NCBI RefSeq assembly: GCF_000024405.1
Contig: NC_013517.1
Location: 4,185,989 to 4,249,988, forward strand
Source of the DNA: Sebaldella termitidis ATCC 33386
Lineage (GTDB): Bacteria; Fusobacteriota; Fusobacteriia; Fusobacteriales; Leptotrichiaceae
Direction of reading: 5' to 3'
DNA: 64,000 nt
Of the stretch, positions 1 to 4,861 are shown piece after piece (position 1 is the first letter of the stretch; each line of letters opens with the position of its first letter). Made by a program: the position numbers and the translations under genes. Under the pieces are notes generated by a model. It made no database searches and had not been told where the DNA came from. It worked only from the letters and a program-made list of their open reading frames with translations.

Positions 1-72
1 TCTTTGAAAGCTTACTGTTTTTCAGATAAAATAACCGCTTCCGCAATATTTTTTTATGCTTTGTTTCCGGCT

Positions 73-903
73 TCATTCACTTTTTCTGTTAATCTCCATT
101 ACTTTATCTGTTGCTTCAGCCACGCTTTTTACCACAAAAGCTGCCTGTTCCTTTATACTTTCTTCTGCATGTGCCATAGCAAAGCTGTATTTACACACTT
201 TAAAGCCGGGCAGATCATTATATGAATCACCTATGTATGCTGCTTCATCAGGGCTTATATCCAGATATTCAAGAAGCTTTATTACCGCACTTCCCTTGGA
301 ATTATTTTCAGGCCCTACCTCCACGCTTCTGCTGCCTGTTATAAATATCTCGCTTTCAAAAAATTCCTTCTGCATCTCTTCCAGCAGGCTGTATTTTTTC
401 TCTTTCCCTGTTCCAATATTTATTTTCAGTACTTTTTCACTATCTGATAATAAAAGTCTCAAATGTCCTCTGGTCAGATATTTTGTATTAAACCTTTTTT
501 TATACAGGAAATTCACAAATCTGCTCACAAAGGCCGCAGGTCTGAAATAATTATTGGACTTGTCAGTTACCAGTACATAAAAATAAATATCCTTCATATA
601 TTTCTTTTCCAGTTTTTTTATTATTTCCCGTACTGCACTCTTTTTCAAAAAGCTCTCATGTATTAATTTATTATTTATATCTGATACAACAGCACCATTT
701 ACACTTATTTTATATAAAGGAATTTTTAGATTTCGTTCTACTTCGTATATGGATTTTTCCAGACGTCCTGTTGCTACTGCAAGTTTGATATTATTATTTT
801 TCAGTTCATTCAGGGCTTTTTCATTTGCCTGATTCGGCCGCACATGATTTCTTGCCTTATATATTAATGTTCCATCCAGATCAGAGATAAATATTTTTAT
901 CAT
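73..903 (-). CDS. Cof-type HAD-superfamily phosphatase (copy 1)
   Basis: A 276-residue cytosolic haloacid-dehalogenase-fold hydrolase of the Cof/IIB type, which usually dephosphorylates sugar phosphates or similar small metabolites. Seen: motif I DLDGT at residues 8-12 (nucleophile D8, acid/base D10), ATGR at 44-47, and the metal-binding GDSYND motif at 225-230; the cap lies between. A GGGAGA site sits 7 bases before the ATG. It lies 23 bp downstream of a clear paralogue on the same strand and is probably co-transcribed with it. The substrate cannot be read from sequence; family membership is firm. Confidence 0.9.
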   Translation of the reverse strand: MIKIFISDLDGTLIYKARNHVRPNQANEKALNELKNNNIKLAVATGRLEKSIYEVERNLKIPLYKISVNGAVVSDINNKLIHESFLKKSAVREIIKKLEKKYMKDIYFYVLVTDKSNNYFRPAAFVSRFVNFLYKKRFNTKYLTRGHLRLLLSDSEKVLKINIGTGKEKKYSLLEEMQKEFFESEIFITGSRSVEVGPENNSKGSAVIKLLEYLDISPDEAAYIGDSYNDLPGFKVCKYSFAMAHAEESIKEQAAFVVKSVAEATDKVMEINRKSE

Positions 904-926
904 TAAAAATCTCCCGTAGTTTTATT

Positions 927-1763
927 TTAAAGTCCGTTTTCTCTGTTTATTTTTATTACTGTATCCACTGCATCTGCTACAGTGTCTACTACAAATGCCG
1001 CCCTGCTTTTTATAAAATCGTCTGCGTGAGACATGGCAAAGCTGTATTTGCATGCTTCAAAGCCGGAAATATCATTATAAGAATCTCCTATAAAGGCTAC
1101 TTCGTTTTCTTTCAGTTTTTTTTTCTCCATTACCACTCTCATGGCATTCCCTTTTGTATTGCCTTTGGGTACTATTTCAATACTTACAGGACCTGAAATA
1201 GTAATCTCGGCCTCAGAATGTCTTTCTCTTAGTTTTTCCTGGAGGATATATTTATTTTCAGAATCAGTAGCTATAAGGACTTTCATTATTTTTTCATTTC
1301 TTCCGGCAAGCTCTTTTATCAGATCTCCGGAATAGCTGATTGCATTAAATCGGCGCTGATATCCGTAAAAATTCACTGCTTTTTTCCAAAAATTCGGATA
1401 TTTAATATATCTTTTCGCTTCCACAGTCTGTAAGACCAGATAATTCAGTTCTTTCATATAATTTTTTTCAATATCGTTTTTTAATTTCTCGGCTTCCTCA
1501 TACGTAAAAGCATTTTCCCTTATAAGAGTATTGTCTTTTGCGTATATTGTCCCCCCGTTCAAACCTATTCTGTAGTTTTGTGATTCTATATACCCTTCTA
1601 TTTCCAGAATATGATAGTCAAACCTTCCTGTTGCTACTGCAAATTCAATATCGTTCTCATGTAGGAGTCTTATCGCATTTACATTTCTTTCATTAGGTTC
1701 AATGCCGGTTTTCGGCTCATGGATTAGTGTTCCGTCCAAATCTGATACAAATAATTTTATCAT
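927..1763 (-). CDS. Cof-type HAD-superfamily phosphatase (copy 2)
   Basis: A 278-residue paralogue of the gene just downstream, from tandem duplication. Seen: DLDGT at 8-12, ATGR at 44-47, GDSYND at 226-231 and a near-identical C-terminal block (CKYSFAM then H). Known for the family: Mg-dependent phosphoaspartate chemistry on phosphorylated sugars or cofactors. A GGGGAAAG ribosome site precedes the ATG, and a TATAAT with an upstream TGG (extended -10) lies at 1791-1799, so this gene probably starts the two-gene unit. The cap domains differ more than the cores, which suggests different substrates. Confidence 0.9.
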   Translation of the reverse strand: MIKLFVSDLDGTLIHEPKTGIEPNERNVNAIRLLHENDIEFAVATGRFDYHILEIEGYIESQNYRIGLNGGTIYAKDNTLIRENAFTYEEAEKLKNDIEKNYMKELNYLVLQTVEAKRYIKYPNFWKKAVNFYGYQRRFNAISYSGDLIKELAGRNEKIMKVLIATDSENKYILQEKLRERHSEAEITISGPVSIEIVPKGNTKGNAMRVVMEKKKLKENEVAFIGDSYNDISGFEACKYSFAMSHADDFIKSRAAFVVDTVADAVDTVIKINRENGL

Positions 1764-1790
1764 TTTTCTTTCCCCTTTATTTTTTATTTT

Positions 1791-1799
1791 ATTATACCA
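1791..1799 (-). promoter_or_regulatory. Extended -10 promoter of the HAD pair
   Basis: On the minus strand TATAAT is preceded by TGG, an extended -10. The hexamer 17 bp upstream (TGTAAT) is a poor -35. It lies about 30 bp before the start of the first HAD gene. Confidence 0.5.
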
Positions 1800-1871
1800 T
1801 ATAGCAGAAGAAAATTACATTCATGAAAACTTTCGGCATATAATATACTGACAAATAAAGATAGAAAACAA

Positions 1872-1911
1872 AAAAACCTGACTTGTTTTTTTTCGAACAG
1901 ATCAGGTTTTT
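1872..1911 (-). terminator. Intrinsic terminator of lipoprotein gene 1
   Basis: AAACCTGA (1874-1881) pairs with TCAGGTTT (1902-1909); the stem continues inward with few mismatches. On the minus strand a run of T follows. The flanking bases make it look bidirectional, but no plus-strand gene reads into it. Confidence 0.75.
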
Positions 1912-1944
1912 CATATAAATTTTTTCAAATATTTTATTAATAAA

Positions 1945-2649
1945 TTAAATTACAAGGCTCATATCCATTTTTTCTCCATTTATCATTGTCGGAAATATAA
2001 GTTTTTCAAGTAATTCAGGTACAAGGGAAGTTTTTGGCTCATCCTTCTGAATCAGTTTATCCCCCTGATAAATTTCCGTTATAATTTTATTTTTATCATT
2101 TAAATACAGCTTCATTGTCATTCCGTTTACCTCGGCAGCTCCGTCTTTAAATATAATTGTACTACCGTAAGCTGTCATTTCTCCGTTTATTTTACCGTCT
2201 ACATCTATTGTAAAATCCTGCTTTATTGCAGTTGTAAGTGTTTTCATCTCTATTTTCGTGGATTCAGGGCGTCCGTCTTTAAAAAATATCGTTACATTCC
2301 CTGTTTTATTCATTTTAGCTGCGTATTCCCCGTCGAATTTAGAATTTATGACATTGAATTTTGTATACTCCCCTTTTGTATTCTTAACTTCTGTCATTCC
2401 GTCCAAATGCCCGTCTTTCAGATTAATAAATCCGCTCCAGCCGGAGGTAAGCTTTTCTTTCGCACTTGTTGCTATTTTTCCTGTATACGGCTGCCCTTTA
2501 TAAGTAACCACTCCTTTATATACCTTACCCTTATGTGTAATCTCTCCCTTTTCATATTTCAGATTTTTATTGGGAAGAGCTACTTCTTTGGGCATGCATG
2601 ATATTACAAGACCTAAAATAAGAGTCAGCATTAATAAATATCTCTTCAT
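1945..2649 (-). CDS. MORN-like repeat lipoprotein, paralogue 1
   Basis: A 234-residue predicted lipoprotein: signal peptide ending in lipobox V-I-S-C with the lipidated Cys at 18. Beyond it is the family signature (LPNKNL), then degenerate MORN_2/YwqK-like repeat units such as YKGQPYTGK, KDGHLDG and FKDGRPE, each built round Tyr/Phe, Gly and an Asp-Gly turn. Three relatives lie just upstream. It is separated from them by a terminator and has its own promoter, so it is expressed independently. Function unknown; a periplasmic or outer-membrane-tethered beta-rich protein is inferred. Related repeat proteins are sometimes annotated as YwqK antitoxins, but nothing here supports a toxin pair. Confidence 0.8.
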   Translation of the reverse strand: MKRYLLMLTLILGLVISCMPKEVALPNKNLKYEKGEITHKGKVYKGVVTYKGQPYTGKIATSAKEKLTSGWSGFINLKDGHLDGMTEVKNTKGEYTKFNVINSKFDGEYAAKMNKTGNVTIFFKDGRPESTKIEMKTLTTAIKQDFTIDVDGKINGEMTAYGSTIIFKDGAAEVNGMTMKLYLNDKNKIITEIYQGDKLIQKDEPKTSLVPELLEKLIFPTMINGEKMDMSLVI

Positions 2650-2686
2650 AAAACTTCCTTTCTCAAGTTGTATATTTTAAAAAAAG

Positions 2687-2715
2687 ATAATAACACAAAA
2701 TAAACGGAAAATCAA
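2687..2715 (-). promoter_or_regulatory. Promoter of lipoprotein gene 1
   Basis: Minus strand: TTGATT, 17-bp spacer, TATTAT, with TGT directly before the -10. It lies between the terminator at 2734-2765 and the gene start at 2649, and shows that this paralogue is a separate transcription unit. Confidence 0.75.
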
Positions 2716-2733
2716 TTAATAATACAGCCGAAA

Positions 2734-2765
2734 GAAAAAAATACCGGAAATATAATCCCGGTATT
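2734..2765 (-). terminator. Terminator of the three-gene lipoprotein operon
   Basis: AATACCGG (2740-2747) and CCGGTATT (2758-2765) form an 8-bp stem followed on the minus strand by a T run. It sits 12 bp after the stop of lipoprotein gene 2. Confidence 0.8.
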
Positions 2766-2776
2766 AATCTATCTTT

Positions 2777-3421
2777 TTATTGCAGCCCTGTTACAGGTAA
2801 TAATTCCTCCGTAAAATCCTTTACTGTAAACAAAAGTATATTTTCTTCCCTTGCCATTAATTTATCTCCCTCATATACTTCTGTAACAAGCTTTTGCTTT
2901 GTTTCGGTATCCAAAAACATTTTTACTTTCAGAGTATCCTTTACAGCCACTCCGCCTTGAAAATCAAGCTGCTTACCGCCTTGTTCTATAAGACCGTTCA
3001 CATTGCCGTCTTTATCAAATATCAGATCCTGATTTATATCATTGGGAAATTTTCCTTTCAGTTCTTTTAGTTCTCCGTTTTCAAAGTTCATAACAAAATC
3101 CCCTATTAACGGATGCTTCAATATATATTCCCCGTTAAATTTTCCGCTTTTTACATCAAATTTGAAATGTGTTTTTGCAGCATCGTTTTTAAAATCCGTA
3201 ATTCCCTCCAGCTTCCCGTCCTTCACACTTATGTATCCTTCTTCAAACTGTTCCTTCTCAGCAATTTTCTTTAGTTTTACTTTTCCTGTGTAAGGCTTTT
3301 CATTATACAGAACTATATTGTCTTTATAATTAAGATGCTTATCCGGTACTGTTACTTCCTTCGGCACCCCGCAAGACAGAATTCCCAATGTACATATAAT
3401 AATTAATAGTAATCTTTTCAT
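2777..3421 (-). CDS. MORN-like repeat lipoprotein, paralogue 2
   Basis: A 214-residue predicted lipoprotein with lipidated Cys at 17 (lipobox I-L-S-C). The mature start carries the family VPDKHL signature, then YTGK and KDGKLEG repeat units that match its neighbours in order and spacing. A GGAGGA site precedes the ATG. It is the last gene of a three-gene operon; the gap to the gene upstream is 10 bp. Function unknown. It shares the overall plan of the other three but has diverged strongly in the C-terminal third, so the duplications are not recent. Confidence 0.8.
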   Translation of the reverse strand: MKRLLLIIICTLGILSCGVPKEVTVPDKHLNYKDNIVLYNEKPYTGKVKLKKIAEKEQFEEGYISVKDGKLEGITDFKNDAAKTHFKFDVKSGKFNGEYILKHPLIGDFVMNFENGELKELKGKFPNDINQDLIFDKDGNVNGLIEQGGKQLDFQGGVAVKDTLKVKMFLDTETKQKLVTEVYEGDKLMAREENILLFTVKDFTEELLPVTGLQ

Positions 3422-3431
3422 TTGTCCTCCT

Positions 3432-4103
3432 CTACTTTTGAGTTTTATAATCCTCTATGGAGCTAAATACTATGTCTTCTATTGTTTCCAAATTTATTCC
3501 CAAAAATTTTTCTGTTTTGGAATAAGATTTTCCGTCAACAAAGCTTTCCATTGTTATCATCCAGGTATTCTGATTTATTGAAAATTTTGCTTCCACATCT
3601 ATGTTGCCGTCATTTTCTATTTTCGCCATGCCGTCTGTAAATACAATTTCAGCTGTGTTTTTTTTATTCTCATGACGAAATACCCCGTTTGCAAGTCCGT
3701 CTGTAAATGTAAAGTTATACTCTGTCTTTTCTTTATCATTACTCATCTGCATAGAAAGTATTACTCCTTTGTCAACATTAAGAGTAAGCTGTCCGTCACC
3801 GCTTTTGTATAAAAGCTCTCCCTGAAATTTACCAGCGTTTATGTTATATTTTAACAGGAATCCGTCTTTTTCATTTTTTATCTCTGCATTTCCTTCCAGG
3901 TGACCGTCTTTTACATACATATATCCTTCATTGCCTCTGGGACTTTTCGGAAGAACCAGTTTGCCAGTGTATGGTTCTTTTTTGTATACTATTGTTCTGT
4001 CAGCCACATTTAAATTTTTATCCGGCAGGACTATTTCTTCCGGTGCTTTACATGCTGTAATTACCAGTAAAACCGGTAAAATAAATAAAAAAAATCTTTT
4101 CAT
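3432..4103 (-). CDS. MORN-like repeat lipoprotein, paralogue 3
   Basis: A 223-residue predicted lipoprotein: hydrophobic signal peptide, lipobox I-T-A-C with Cys at 18, then IVLPDKNL. Repeat units YTGKL, KDGHLEG and FTDGLANG follow. The FTDGLANG unit is almost the same as FVDGLANG in paralogue 4, marking these two as the closest pair. An AGGAGA site sits before the start. It is the middle gene of the operon, with short gaps on both sides. Envelope location is inferred from the signal; the molecular role is not recognisable. Confidence 0.8.
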   Translation of the reverse strand: MKRFFLFILPVLLVITACKAPEEIVLPDKNLNVADRTIVYKKEPYTGKLVLPKSPRGNEGYMYVKDGHLEGNAEIKNEKDGFLLKYNINAGKFQGELLYKSGDGQLTLNVDKGVILSMQMSNDKEKTEYNFTFTDGLANGVFRHENKKNTAEIVFTDGMAKIENDGNIDVEAKFSINQNTWMITMESFVDGKSYSKTEKFLGINLETIEDIVFSSIEDYKTQK

Positions 4104-4119
4104 TCCTATCTCCTATGCT

Positions 4120-4785
4120 TTATTTGTCCTTTCCTTTACTGTTTTCTTCCAGAATACTGGATATTGCTATTATTCTAAAATATTCCATTCCAAAAACTTT
4201 GTTTGGTTTCTCGTCTCTTCCTGCAGATTTCCCGTTAATAAAGAATTCCATTCCCATATCCCCGGTTTCCTGATTTACATAATATTTCACTTCTGTAGTA
4301 ATACCATCCTCTTCAAGAGTAAGTACCCCGTCAGAGAAAACAAATTTTTCACCTTCAGATTCAAACCAGCCGTTAGCCAGTCCGTCTACAAATGTAATGT
4401 CATACTTTACTGTTTTTGAATAATCTCCCAAAAGCTTTACTATTTTTCCGTTATTATAATTTACAGTCATGTTTATTCCCTGATCTGCATTTTTTACTAC
4501 TGTTTCACCTTCAAATTGGTTATTAACTATATTAAATTTTGTGTACATTTGTTTTTTGTCATTTTTCAGTTCAGTGGGACCGTCAAGATGACCGTCCTTA
4601 AATGTTATAAATCCGGATACACTATTTTTATCCTTTAGATTTATCTTTCCTGTATATTTTTCATTTTTAAAAAATACAGTTTCATTTTCTATTTTTATAT
4701 CTTTATCCGGAAGTGTTACTTTCTTTGAAGTTCCACAAGACAAGACCATTAAAACCAATAATATTATTAAGATTCCTTTCTTCAT
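4120..4785 (-). CDS. MORN-like repeat lipoprotein, paralogue 4
   Basis: A 221-residue predicted lipoprotein, first gene of the operon. Signal peptide ends in V-L-S-C with Cys at 17; the mature protein starts with the VTLPDKD signature and contains YTGKI, KDGHLDGPTELKN and FVDGLANG units. AAGGAGG lies 4-5 bases before the ATG. It is transcribed divergently from the metallo-hydrolase at 5001. A -10 TATAAT is seen at 4820-4825. Function unknown; the expanded paralogue set suggests a surface or periplasmic role under diversifying pressure, which is inference. Confidence 0.8.
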   Translation of the reverse strand: MKKGILIILLVLMVLSCGTSKKVTLPDKDIKIENETVFFKNEKYTGKINLKDKNSVSGFITFKDGHLDGPTELKNDKKQMYTKFNIVNNQFEGETVVKNADQGINMTVNYNNGKIVKLLGDYSKTVKYDITFVDGLANGWFESEGEKFVFSDGVLTLEEDGITTEVKYYVNQETGDMGMEFFINGKSAGRDEKPNKVFGMEYFRIIAISSILEENSKGKDK

Positions 4786-4819: not shown

Positions 4820-4861
4820 ATTATACCATAAAAATAAAATTAAATAAAGACTGCTGCAGTC
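4820..4861 (-). promoter_or_regulatory. Lipoprotein operon promoter with upstream palindrome
   Basis: Minus strand: TATAAT at 4820-4825 with a weak TTTATT -35 at 4843-4848 (17-bp spacer). Directly upstream, 4849-4861, is a 13-base palindrome, GACTGC-T-GCAGTC, which may be an operator for this promoter. Confidence 0.5.

What the first reader, a model, noticed from the sequence alone, without database searches (positions are those of the whole stretch)
1945..4785. Four paralogous MORN-like lipoproteins in two transcription units
Four neighbouring genes share signal peptide, lipobox, the post-Cys V/I-x-L/V-P-D/N-K signature and the order of Tyr-Gly and KDG-H-LDG repeats, yet are strongly diverged. 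The last copy has gained its own promoter and is insulated by a terminator. The repeats resemble YwqK/MORN_2 units. An expanded set of anchored beta-solenoid-like proteins with separate control suggests functional diversification at the cell surface.
Basis: partly seen in the sequence, partly recalled or inferred. Interest (0 to 1): 0.5.

Follow-up and report, generated by a model that had tools for sequence, protein, structure and literature searches.

The report
Four old tandem MORN-like lipoprotein genes
A termite-gut bacterium carries four neighbouring genes for lipid-anchored envelope proteins that look like strongly drifted relatives of the common "MORN" repeat proteins; the duplications are old and selectively maintained, and the most likely role is as binding scaffolds in the cell envelope.

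Summary
Four minus-strand genes (4785-4120, 4103-3432, 3421-2777, 2649-1945) encode 214-234 aa paralogous lipoproteins, 33-42% identical, sharing signal peptide, Cys, P-[DN]-K, YTGK and K-D-G-[HK]-L-[DE]-G. A terminator-like hairpin separates copies 3 and 4, and copy 4 has a promoter-like site; both recur in a sister genome. The genome matches Sebaldella termitidis NCTC 11300 in size.

No copy scores as Pfam MORN_2, but a mature-only profile finds Pfam-certified MORN_2 lipoproteins elsewhere in the phylum (E 1.6e-5 to 5e-9; best reversed decoy 0.24). AlphaFold models of copies 1 and 4 (pLDDT 87.6, 78.6) are beta-hairpin sheets with a C-terminal helix, nearest to MORN1, radial-spoke proteins and OspA. 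"Beta-solenoid" is not supported.

The set is old, not recently expanded: one-to-one in one sister genome, three of four in another, under purifying selection (dN/dS 0.04-0.31). The genome holds 8-9 members at four or five places, without a shared toxin neighbour. Best reading: anchored binding or oligomerisation scaffolds, each with its own partner (inferred). Exported MORN2 proteins are already known to be expanded in Fusobacterium, so this is a new variant of a known kind.

The parts
4120..4785 (-). copy 1, MORN-like lipoprotein, 221 aa, Cys17
   Evidence: AlphaFold2 model mean pLDDT 87.6, pTM 0.76
3432..4103 (-). copy 2, MORN-like lipoprotein, 223 aa, Cys18
2777..3421 (-). copy 3, MORN-like lipoprotein, 214 aa, Cys17
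1945..2649 (-). copy 4, MORN-like lipoprotein, 234 aa, Cys18, with 11 extra residues before the YTGK hairpin that read as an imperfect copy of the following 11 (6 of 11 identical, by eye)
   Evidence: AlphaFold2 model mean pLDDT 78.6, pTM 0.68
4820..4830 (-). extended -10 site TATGGTATAAT upstream of copy 1, the same in G025 and G026, TATGTTATAAT in G024
   Evidence: alignment of four upstream regions; position read; not in the consensus list
2740..2765 (-). intrinsic-terminator-like hairpin between copies 3 and 4
   Evidence: kept in G025 and G026
2687..2715 (-). promoter-like site of copy 4, TTGATT-17-TATTAT with TG before the -10; layout kept in G025
1866..1915 (-). terminator-like hairpin plus T run after copy 4 (-16.4 kcal/mol, 0 of 200 shuffles fold as well)
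   Evidence: not listed by the consensus scan

Best explanation
The four genes encode exported, lipid-anchored proteins. Each mature part is a single-layer antiparallel beta-sheet of MORN-type hairpins (about 22-24 residues per repeat in the first half) closed by a C-terminal helix. They descend from MORN_2-type lipoproteins; the repeats have drifted beyond Pfam's MORN_2 model.

They most likely work as envelope scaffolds. The lipid fixes the N-terminus in the outer membrane and the sheet offers a long, two-faced surface for binding a partner protein or for pairing with another sheet. Each paralogue would have its own partner, and copy 4 is expressed under separate control.

Shown: paralogy, the signal and Cys motif, profile homology, age of the copies, purifying selection, conserved hairpin. 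Predicted: the fold (copies 1 and 4). Inferred: lipidation, outer-membrane location, binding role, separate expression of copy 4.
For: Fold: model of copy 1 is beta-hairpins plus helix 200-219; Foldseek's first PDB row is T. gondii MORN1 (E 7e-3, probability 0.99). VIA-align gives OspA 8.3 and MORN1 or radial-spoke proteins 7.0-7.6. Of 12 viral models at E <= 1e-3, 5 carry a name and all 5 are MORN-repeat proteins; 7 are unnamed.

Sequence: a profile without the signal peptide finds five lipoproteins that pass Pfam MORN_2 (71-169 bits) at E 5.1e-9 to 1.6e-5; best reversed decoy 0.24. Of 23 positions invariant in the 9-sequence alignment 9 are Gly and most others belong to YTGK and K-x-G-x-L-x-G; there is no invariant His, Asp, Ser, Cys or Arg.

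Constraint: dN/dS 0.04-0.31 for 9 orthologue pairs of the array copies.

Published frame: MORN1 crystal structures led their authors to call MORN repeats protein-protein interaction modules (PMC7725318, abstract and outline).
Against: A repeat-unit profile from true MORN_2 proteins finds copy 4 (0 of 250 shuffles as good) but not copy 1, and only weakly copies 2 (4 of 250) and 3 (27 of 250). MORN_2 is not listed for any of 20 family members in Pfam up to E 10 (HMMER's filters drop most matches above 0.1). No PDB hit of either model reaches Foldseek E 1e-3, and TM-scores in the listed rows stay below 0.4. Among the first 12 rows for copy 1 are also Mon1-Ccz1 complexes and an OspA mutant, and OspA, which is not called a MORN protein (recalled), ranks first for copy 4. 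VIA Z of 7-8 is common for unclear models (note). I found no binding-partner, expression or location data for these proteins.
Confidence: 0.6

Rival explanations
1. Surface-exposed adhesins or host-contact proteins in the termite gut, in the way proposed for MORN2 proteins of invasive Fusobacterium.
For: MORN2 proteins are enriched in the predicted secretome (PMC5551000, passages) and found in vesicles of F. nucleatum (PMC10434195, passages); a 2026 review places them in a likely docking and invasion network (PMC12940168, passages). The fold also resembles OspA, a surface lipoprotein.
Against: The vesicle paper says the function is unproven, the review that it is unknown. The copies are under purifying selection over the whole gene, not diversifying (site tests not done). 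The genes directly beside the array are two HAD hydrolases, a metallo-beta-lactamase-fold protein and a prismane protein, not adhesins.
Confidence: 0.2
2. Immunity or antitoxin lipoproteins (YwqK-like): each copy protects against a different envelope-acting toxin, which would explain an array of diverged copies.
For: YwqK, a MORN_2-type protein by its usual annotation (recalled), is listed as the putative antitoxin partner of the LXG toxin YwqJ in B. subtilis (PMC8321402, passages). In G025 a family member without the lipobox Cys lies directly before a gene with a TPS secretion domain (L037:4119-4787 and 41-3580). The 939 kb member lies between a putative HNHc nuclease gene and two DKNYY-family genes, with a TPR protein gene nearby, the sort of mixed company that an immunity island could have.
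Against: The array's own neighbours are HAD, HAD, metallo-beta-lactamase-fold and prismane. Around the 50 kb pair are a zinc-binding dehydrogenase and an L-PSP protein, around the 3,875 kb member a Bax1-I protein, around the two G004 members an ECF transporter and DUF4116, YcxB, HTH proteins: no shared partner. In G000 the TPS genes lie about 55 kb or more from family members, and in G024 and G026 on other contigs. Best PADLOC E is 0.037. Not all neighbours were scanned.
Confidence: 0.1
3. An OspA-type single-layer sheet that is only analogous to MORN proteins; the likeness to MORN_2 is convergence on Gly-rich beta turns.
For: OspA entries fill the top of the Foldseek list for copy 4 (best E 1.2e-3) and rank first for copy 1 in VIA-align (8.3).
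Against: The mature-only profile aligns MORN_2 lipoproteins through the first repeats with far better scores than decoys. The profile of 20 members does not list OspA in the PDB by sequence up to E 10.
Confidence: 0.1

Closest known systems
Exported MORN_2 (MORN2, YwqK-type) lipoproteins of Fusobacteriota, Pfam PF07661
   Same: Signal peptide and Cys; K-E-V shortly after the Cys (copies 3 and 4; L067, L069), K-P-[YF]-T-G-K and then K-D-G-K-L-E-G are visible in both groups; profile match without the signal peptide; several copies per genome.
   Different: MORN_2 is not listed for any copy in Pfam. The known ones tested have 4-15 clear repeats; these have a fixed length of 214-234 aa and a predicted C-terminal helix.
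Eukaryotic MORN-repeat proteins (MORN1, radial-spoke protein, junctophilin)
   Same: Predicted hairpin sheet; among the first Foldseek rows of copy 1.
   Different: No lipid anchor of this kind (recalled); only about 8-16% sequence identity in the structural alignments.
OspA of Borrelia
   Same: Lipoprotein (recalled) with a single-layer beta-sheet; top VIA and Foldseek rows for copy 4.
   Different: No sequence match.
   Same: An N-terminal stretch of about 160-185 residues matches the mature-only profile; YARHG confirmed by Pfam in L045, L046, L066.
   Different: The window copies have no YARHG.

Membership tests
Pfam PF07661 MORN_2 | score above the curated cut-off of 29.6 bits | tested here: not met
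   MORN_2 is listed for 0 of 4 window copies and 0 of 20 family members at E <= 10
Pfam PF07661 MORN_2 | profile homology to certified members outside the signal peptide | tested here: met
   mature-only profile, E 5.1e-9 to 1.6e-5 for L061, L063, L067, L069, L070, decoys >= 0.24, all five MORN_2 by Pfam. The loci had been picked by the same family's profile.
Pfam PF07661 MORN_2 | repeat units of about 22-24 residues | tested here: inconclusive
   hairpin strand starts 56, 80, 104, 126 in the copy 1 model; unit profile finds copy 4 (0 of 250 shuffles), weak for 2 (4 of 250) and 3 (27 of 250), none for 1
MORN fold (single-layer hairpin sheet) | structural match to solved MORN proteins | tested here: inconclusive
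   copy 1: MORN1 first, probability 0.99, E 7e-3, Z 7.0-7.6; copy 4: MORN1 and radial-spoke rows below OspA. Best rows, but none at E 1e-3, TM below 0.4, predicted models only.
Bacterial lipoproteins | N-terminal signal with a Cys at the cleavage site | tested here: met
   Cys 17 or 18 after a hydrophobic stretch in 4 of 4; Cys column held in 15 of 20 family members. Lipidation not tested; no signal-peptide program was run.
YwqK-type antitoxin or immunity protein | partner toxin gene next door | tested here: inconclusive
   none recognised by Pfam directly beside the array, and no shared partner in the other loci scanned; one TPS-domain neighbour in G025, one HNHc-nuclease neighbour at 939 kb
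Beta-solenoid | coiled, closed rungs | tested here: not met
   secondary structure is successive antiparallel-type hairpins and the best matches are single-layer sheets

The most novel reading that the evidence does not exclude
Fusobacteriota share an unannotated N-terminal lipoprotein module (Cys, often K-E-V, then a hairpin ending in [YF]-[TSN]-G). It works as the membrane-proximal docking unit and is fitted to different outer parts: MORN_2 arrays, a diverged fixed-length MORN sheet with helix (Sebaldella), a YARHG domain, or almost nothing (70-aa mini-lipoproteins). All would plug into one common envelope partner.
Probability: 0.15. Interest if true: 0.5.

Novelty: new variant of a known kind. 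Interest (0 to 1): 0.3.

Why it matters
Exported MORN2 proteins are numerous and poorly understood envelope proteins of Fusobacterium, suspected of roles in adhesion and invasion without proof (passages). Sebaldella offers a compact set of short, old, individually maintained copies, from a genus not known to me as a pathogen, that Pfam misses. It could be used to ask what these sheets bind. It also suggests that Pfam counts of MORN_2 underestimate the family.

Tried and rejected
Pfam, NCBIfam, PADLOC and PHROGs scans of the four copies gave nothing better than E 0.0018 (a PHROG of unknown function, residues 1-61 of copy 1); no Pfam or NCBIfam hit passed its curated cut-off.

PDB sequence search with the first profile hit designed beta-trefoils (best E 5.6e-4, residues 72-135); with the broader profile they are not listed, so they were treated as chance. 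SET7/9, MORN4 and SdeC appeared weakly (E 0.005-0.23) for a MORN_2 protein of the same phylum.

Immunity-array idea: tested by reading neighbours of the array, of the 50 kb pair, of the 939 kb and 3,875 kb members, of two G004 members and of the extra G025 member (the listing was cut), and by Pfam on 20 neighbouring or nearby genes. The loci L041, L042, L048, L049 and L050 were fetched but their neighbours were not read.

OspA-MORN link: no sequence support, and a whole-word search of the held papers for OspA with MORN found only one 1891 text.

Antisense ORFs over the array (for example 3931-4419, + strand) were read as a by-product of coding conservation: a similar one lies opposite copies 1-2 in L009. 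Not tested further.

Literature: the Manson McGuire 2014 mBio paper, which the passages cite for the MORN2 expansion, is not held under the DOI I tried, given from memory; I did not see it. Genome paper PMC3035275 and family paper PMC5093955 do not contain the word MORN in the text held. Search listings were also seen; one further passage each was read in PMC13076502 and PMC10269558.

Full report
What was checked. The window lies at 4185989-4249988 of the first contig of a 4,486,650-base, three-contig genome. Its 4,418,842-base contig and total size equal those published for Sebaldella termitidis NCTC 11300 (PMC3035275, passages). On the minus strand four genes follow one another: copy 1 (4785-4120), copy 2 (4103-3432), copy 3 (3421-2777), copy 4 (2649-1945). 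They align from end to end, with 33-42% identity. All four have the signal peptide, Cys, P-[DN]-K, YTGK and K-D-G-[HK]-L-[DE]-G. Copy 4 has 11 extra residues just before YTGK, which read as an imperfect copy of the following hairpin (6 of 11 identical, counted by eye).

Transcription. Gaps of 16 and 10 bases put copies 1-3 in one likely unit. Behind copy 3 there is a hairpin with a T run (-13.4 kcal/mol; 1 of 200 shuffles as good), present with nearly the same sequence in G025 (3 of 200) and G026 (0 of 200). Before copy 4 is TTGATT-17-TATTAT; G025 has TTGATT-17-TATATT at the matching place with a different spacer, which suggests a kept promoter (spacers counted by eye). Promoter-like sites as a class are no commoner than chance in this region, so the conservation carries the argument. 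In G024 the gaps are 108 and 71 bases and I saw no such hairpin there (by eye, not folded). So the insulated fourth gene is real as a layout, but whether it was gained in one lineage or lost in the other is open. Behind copy 4 is a second strong hairpin (-16.4 kcal/mol; 0 of 200).

Age. The profile of the four finds 8 places in the chromosome: the four, a pair at 50-51 kb, one at 939 kb, one short one at 3,875 kb. The broader profile A4 adds a ninth match at 2,845 kb (E 2.3e-4). Of 33 genomes of the family 16 match at E <= 0.001, but only the four of the same genus and G004 match strongly (best E 5.5e-34 or better; next 2.7e-13). In 98 Fusobacteriota genomes 56 match at E <= 0.001, and 5 of 98 below 1e-20. 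In the tree of 22 rows the orthologues of copy 1, copy 2 and copy 3 from G000, G025 and G026 each form a clade with bootstrap 100, as do copy 4 of G000 and G025; copies 1 and 3 also have a G024 partner (bootstrap 80 and 98). Eight of 19 inner forks are open and the deeper order of the copies is unresolved. The duplications therefore precede the G000-G025 split. G026 lacks copy 4 on its contig: its gap between copy 3 and the HAD gene begins with the copy-3 hairpin and ends with the HAD promoter region (by eye). Since G025 has copy 4 and branches outside G000 plus G026 in the copy 1 and copy 3 clades, loss in G026 is the simplest reading, misassembly aside. G024 has a third gene with an in-frame stop in the assembly; its place in the tree is unresolved.

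Selection. dN/dS for the 9 orthologue pairs of array copies runs from 0.04 to 0.31; the flanking HAD (two pairs), Hcp and MBL genes give 0.04-0.13, and the 50 kb pair 0.10 and 0.18. Several dS values are near or above 1, so these are rough. Copies 2 and 4 are the least constrained between G000 and G025 (0.19 and 0.22) and copies 1 and 3 the most (0.04 and 0.07). There is no sign of gene-wide diversifying selection; sites were not tested.

Family. MORN_2 is not listed for any copy, although the genome has 14 MORN_2 unit matches in 7 other reading frames, one frame over the cut-off. Two lines join the family to MORN. First, sequence: profile-profile comparison with a 15-repeat MORN_2 lipoprotein gives 97% probability (E 4.4e-11), but that includes the signal peptide. 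I therefore rebuilt the profile without it. It still finds lipoproteins from other genera of the order that Pfam certifies as MORN_2 at E 5.1e-9 to 1.6e-5, and lipoproteins of the YARHG type at 1.1e-6 to 3.4e-13, while reversed decoys start at 0.24 (YARHG confirmed by Pfam in three, the others by likeness). A caution: those loci had been chosen by the same family's profile, and E-values are for a small set. Second, fold: copy 1 is predicted well (pLDDT 87.6, five models 68-88, nine sequences) as hairpins plus a C-terminal helix, copy 4 less well (78.6) with the same elements. Solved MORN1, radial-spoke proteins and junctophilin are among the first Foldseek rows for copy 1, together with unrelated ones; OspA leads for copy 4, and VIA-align mixes the two. 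Both are single-layer sheets. No hit is strong in absolute terms.

Against this, a profile of single MORN_2 units recognises copy 4 but not copy 1. I conclude that these are drifted MORN-type proteins, not members by the Pfam rule.

Function. Of the 23 invariant positions 9 are glycines and most others belong to the YTGK and KxGxLxG motifs, without an invariant His, Asp, Ser, Cys or Arg, which fits a scaffold better than an enzyme. The published crystal work on MORN1 calls MORN repeats protein-protein interaction modules; it found no binding to membranes but did find interaction with single phospholipids (PMC7725318, abstract). In Fusobacterium, exported MORN2 proteins are numerous, occur in vesicles and are suspected in adhesion, but their function has not been validated (PMC10434195 passages; PMC12940168 passages; PMC5551000 passages). 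I therefore favour lipid-anchored binding scaffolds with copy-specific partners. The array sits between two HAD hydrolase genes and a metallo-beta-lactamase-fold gene followed by a prismane gene, and other members have other company, so no partner gene stands out. A TPS-domain gene beside the extra G025 member and an HNHc-nuclease and DKNYY genes beside the 939 kb member keep the immunity reading alive.

Verdict. It is a new variant of a known and poorly understood kind, moderately interesting.

Noticed in passing
L075-L081, L083 (for example L079:1429-1641): Mini-lipoproteins of about 70 aa in genomes of another family of the order consist of little more than signal, Cys, K-[EQ]-V and one L-F-T-G hairpin, like the cap of the window family standing alone (two of them Pfam-scanned without a hit over cut-off).
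   Followed up: partly
L045:7547-8641, L046:6670-7815, L066:1297-2565: Lipoproteins of another genus of the same family carry a matching N-terminal module with a C-terminal YARHG domain.
   Followed up: partly
L037:4119-4787 and 41-3580: In G025 a family member without the lipobox Cys lies directly before a TPS-domain gene, beyond the array and the two HAD genes; next to the array in the window's genome there is no such pair.
   Followed up: partly
L038:9109-9768 and L041:8710-9369: The second gene of the 50 kb pair has Phe in place of the lipobox Cys in both genomes, so a lipoprotein appears paired with an unanchored exported paralogue.
   Followed up: no
L039:6817-10698: The 939 kb member stands among a TPR protein, a putative HNHc nuclease and two DKNYY-family genes.
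   Followed up: partly
L010:7479-8105: Third array gene of G024 is interrupted by an in-frame TAA in the assembly; real pseudogene or assembly error not decided.
   Followed up: no
window 73-903 and 927-1763: Two neighbouring Hydrolase_3 (HAD) genes stand next to the array; two alike genes keep this place in G025.
   Followed up: partly
L084:12638-13147: A signal peptidase II gene (Peptidase_A8, the enzyme that cleaves lipoproteins) lies about 7 kb outside the window on the side of the array.
   Followed up: no
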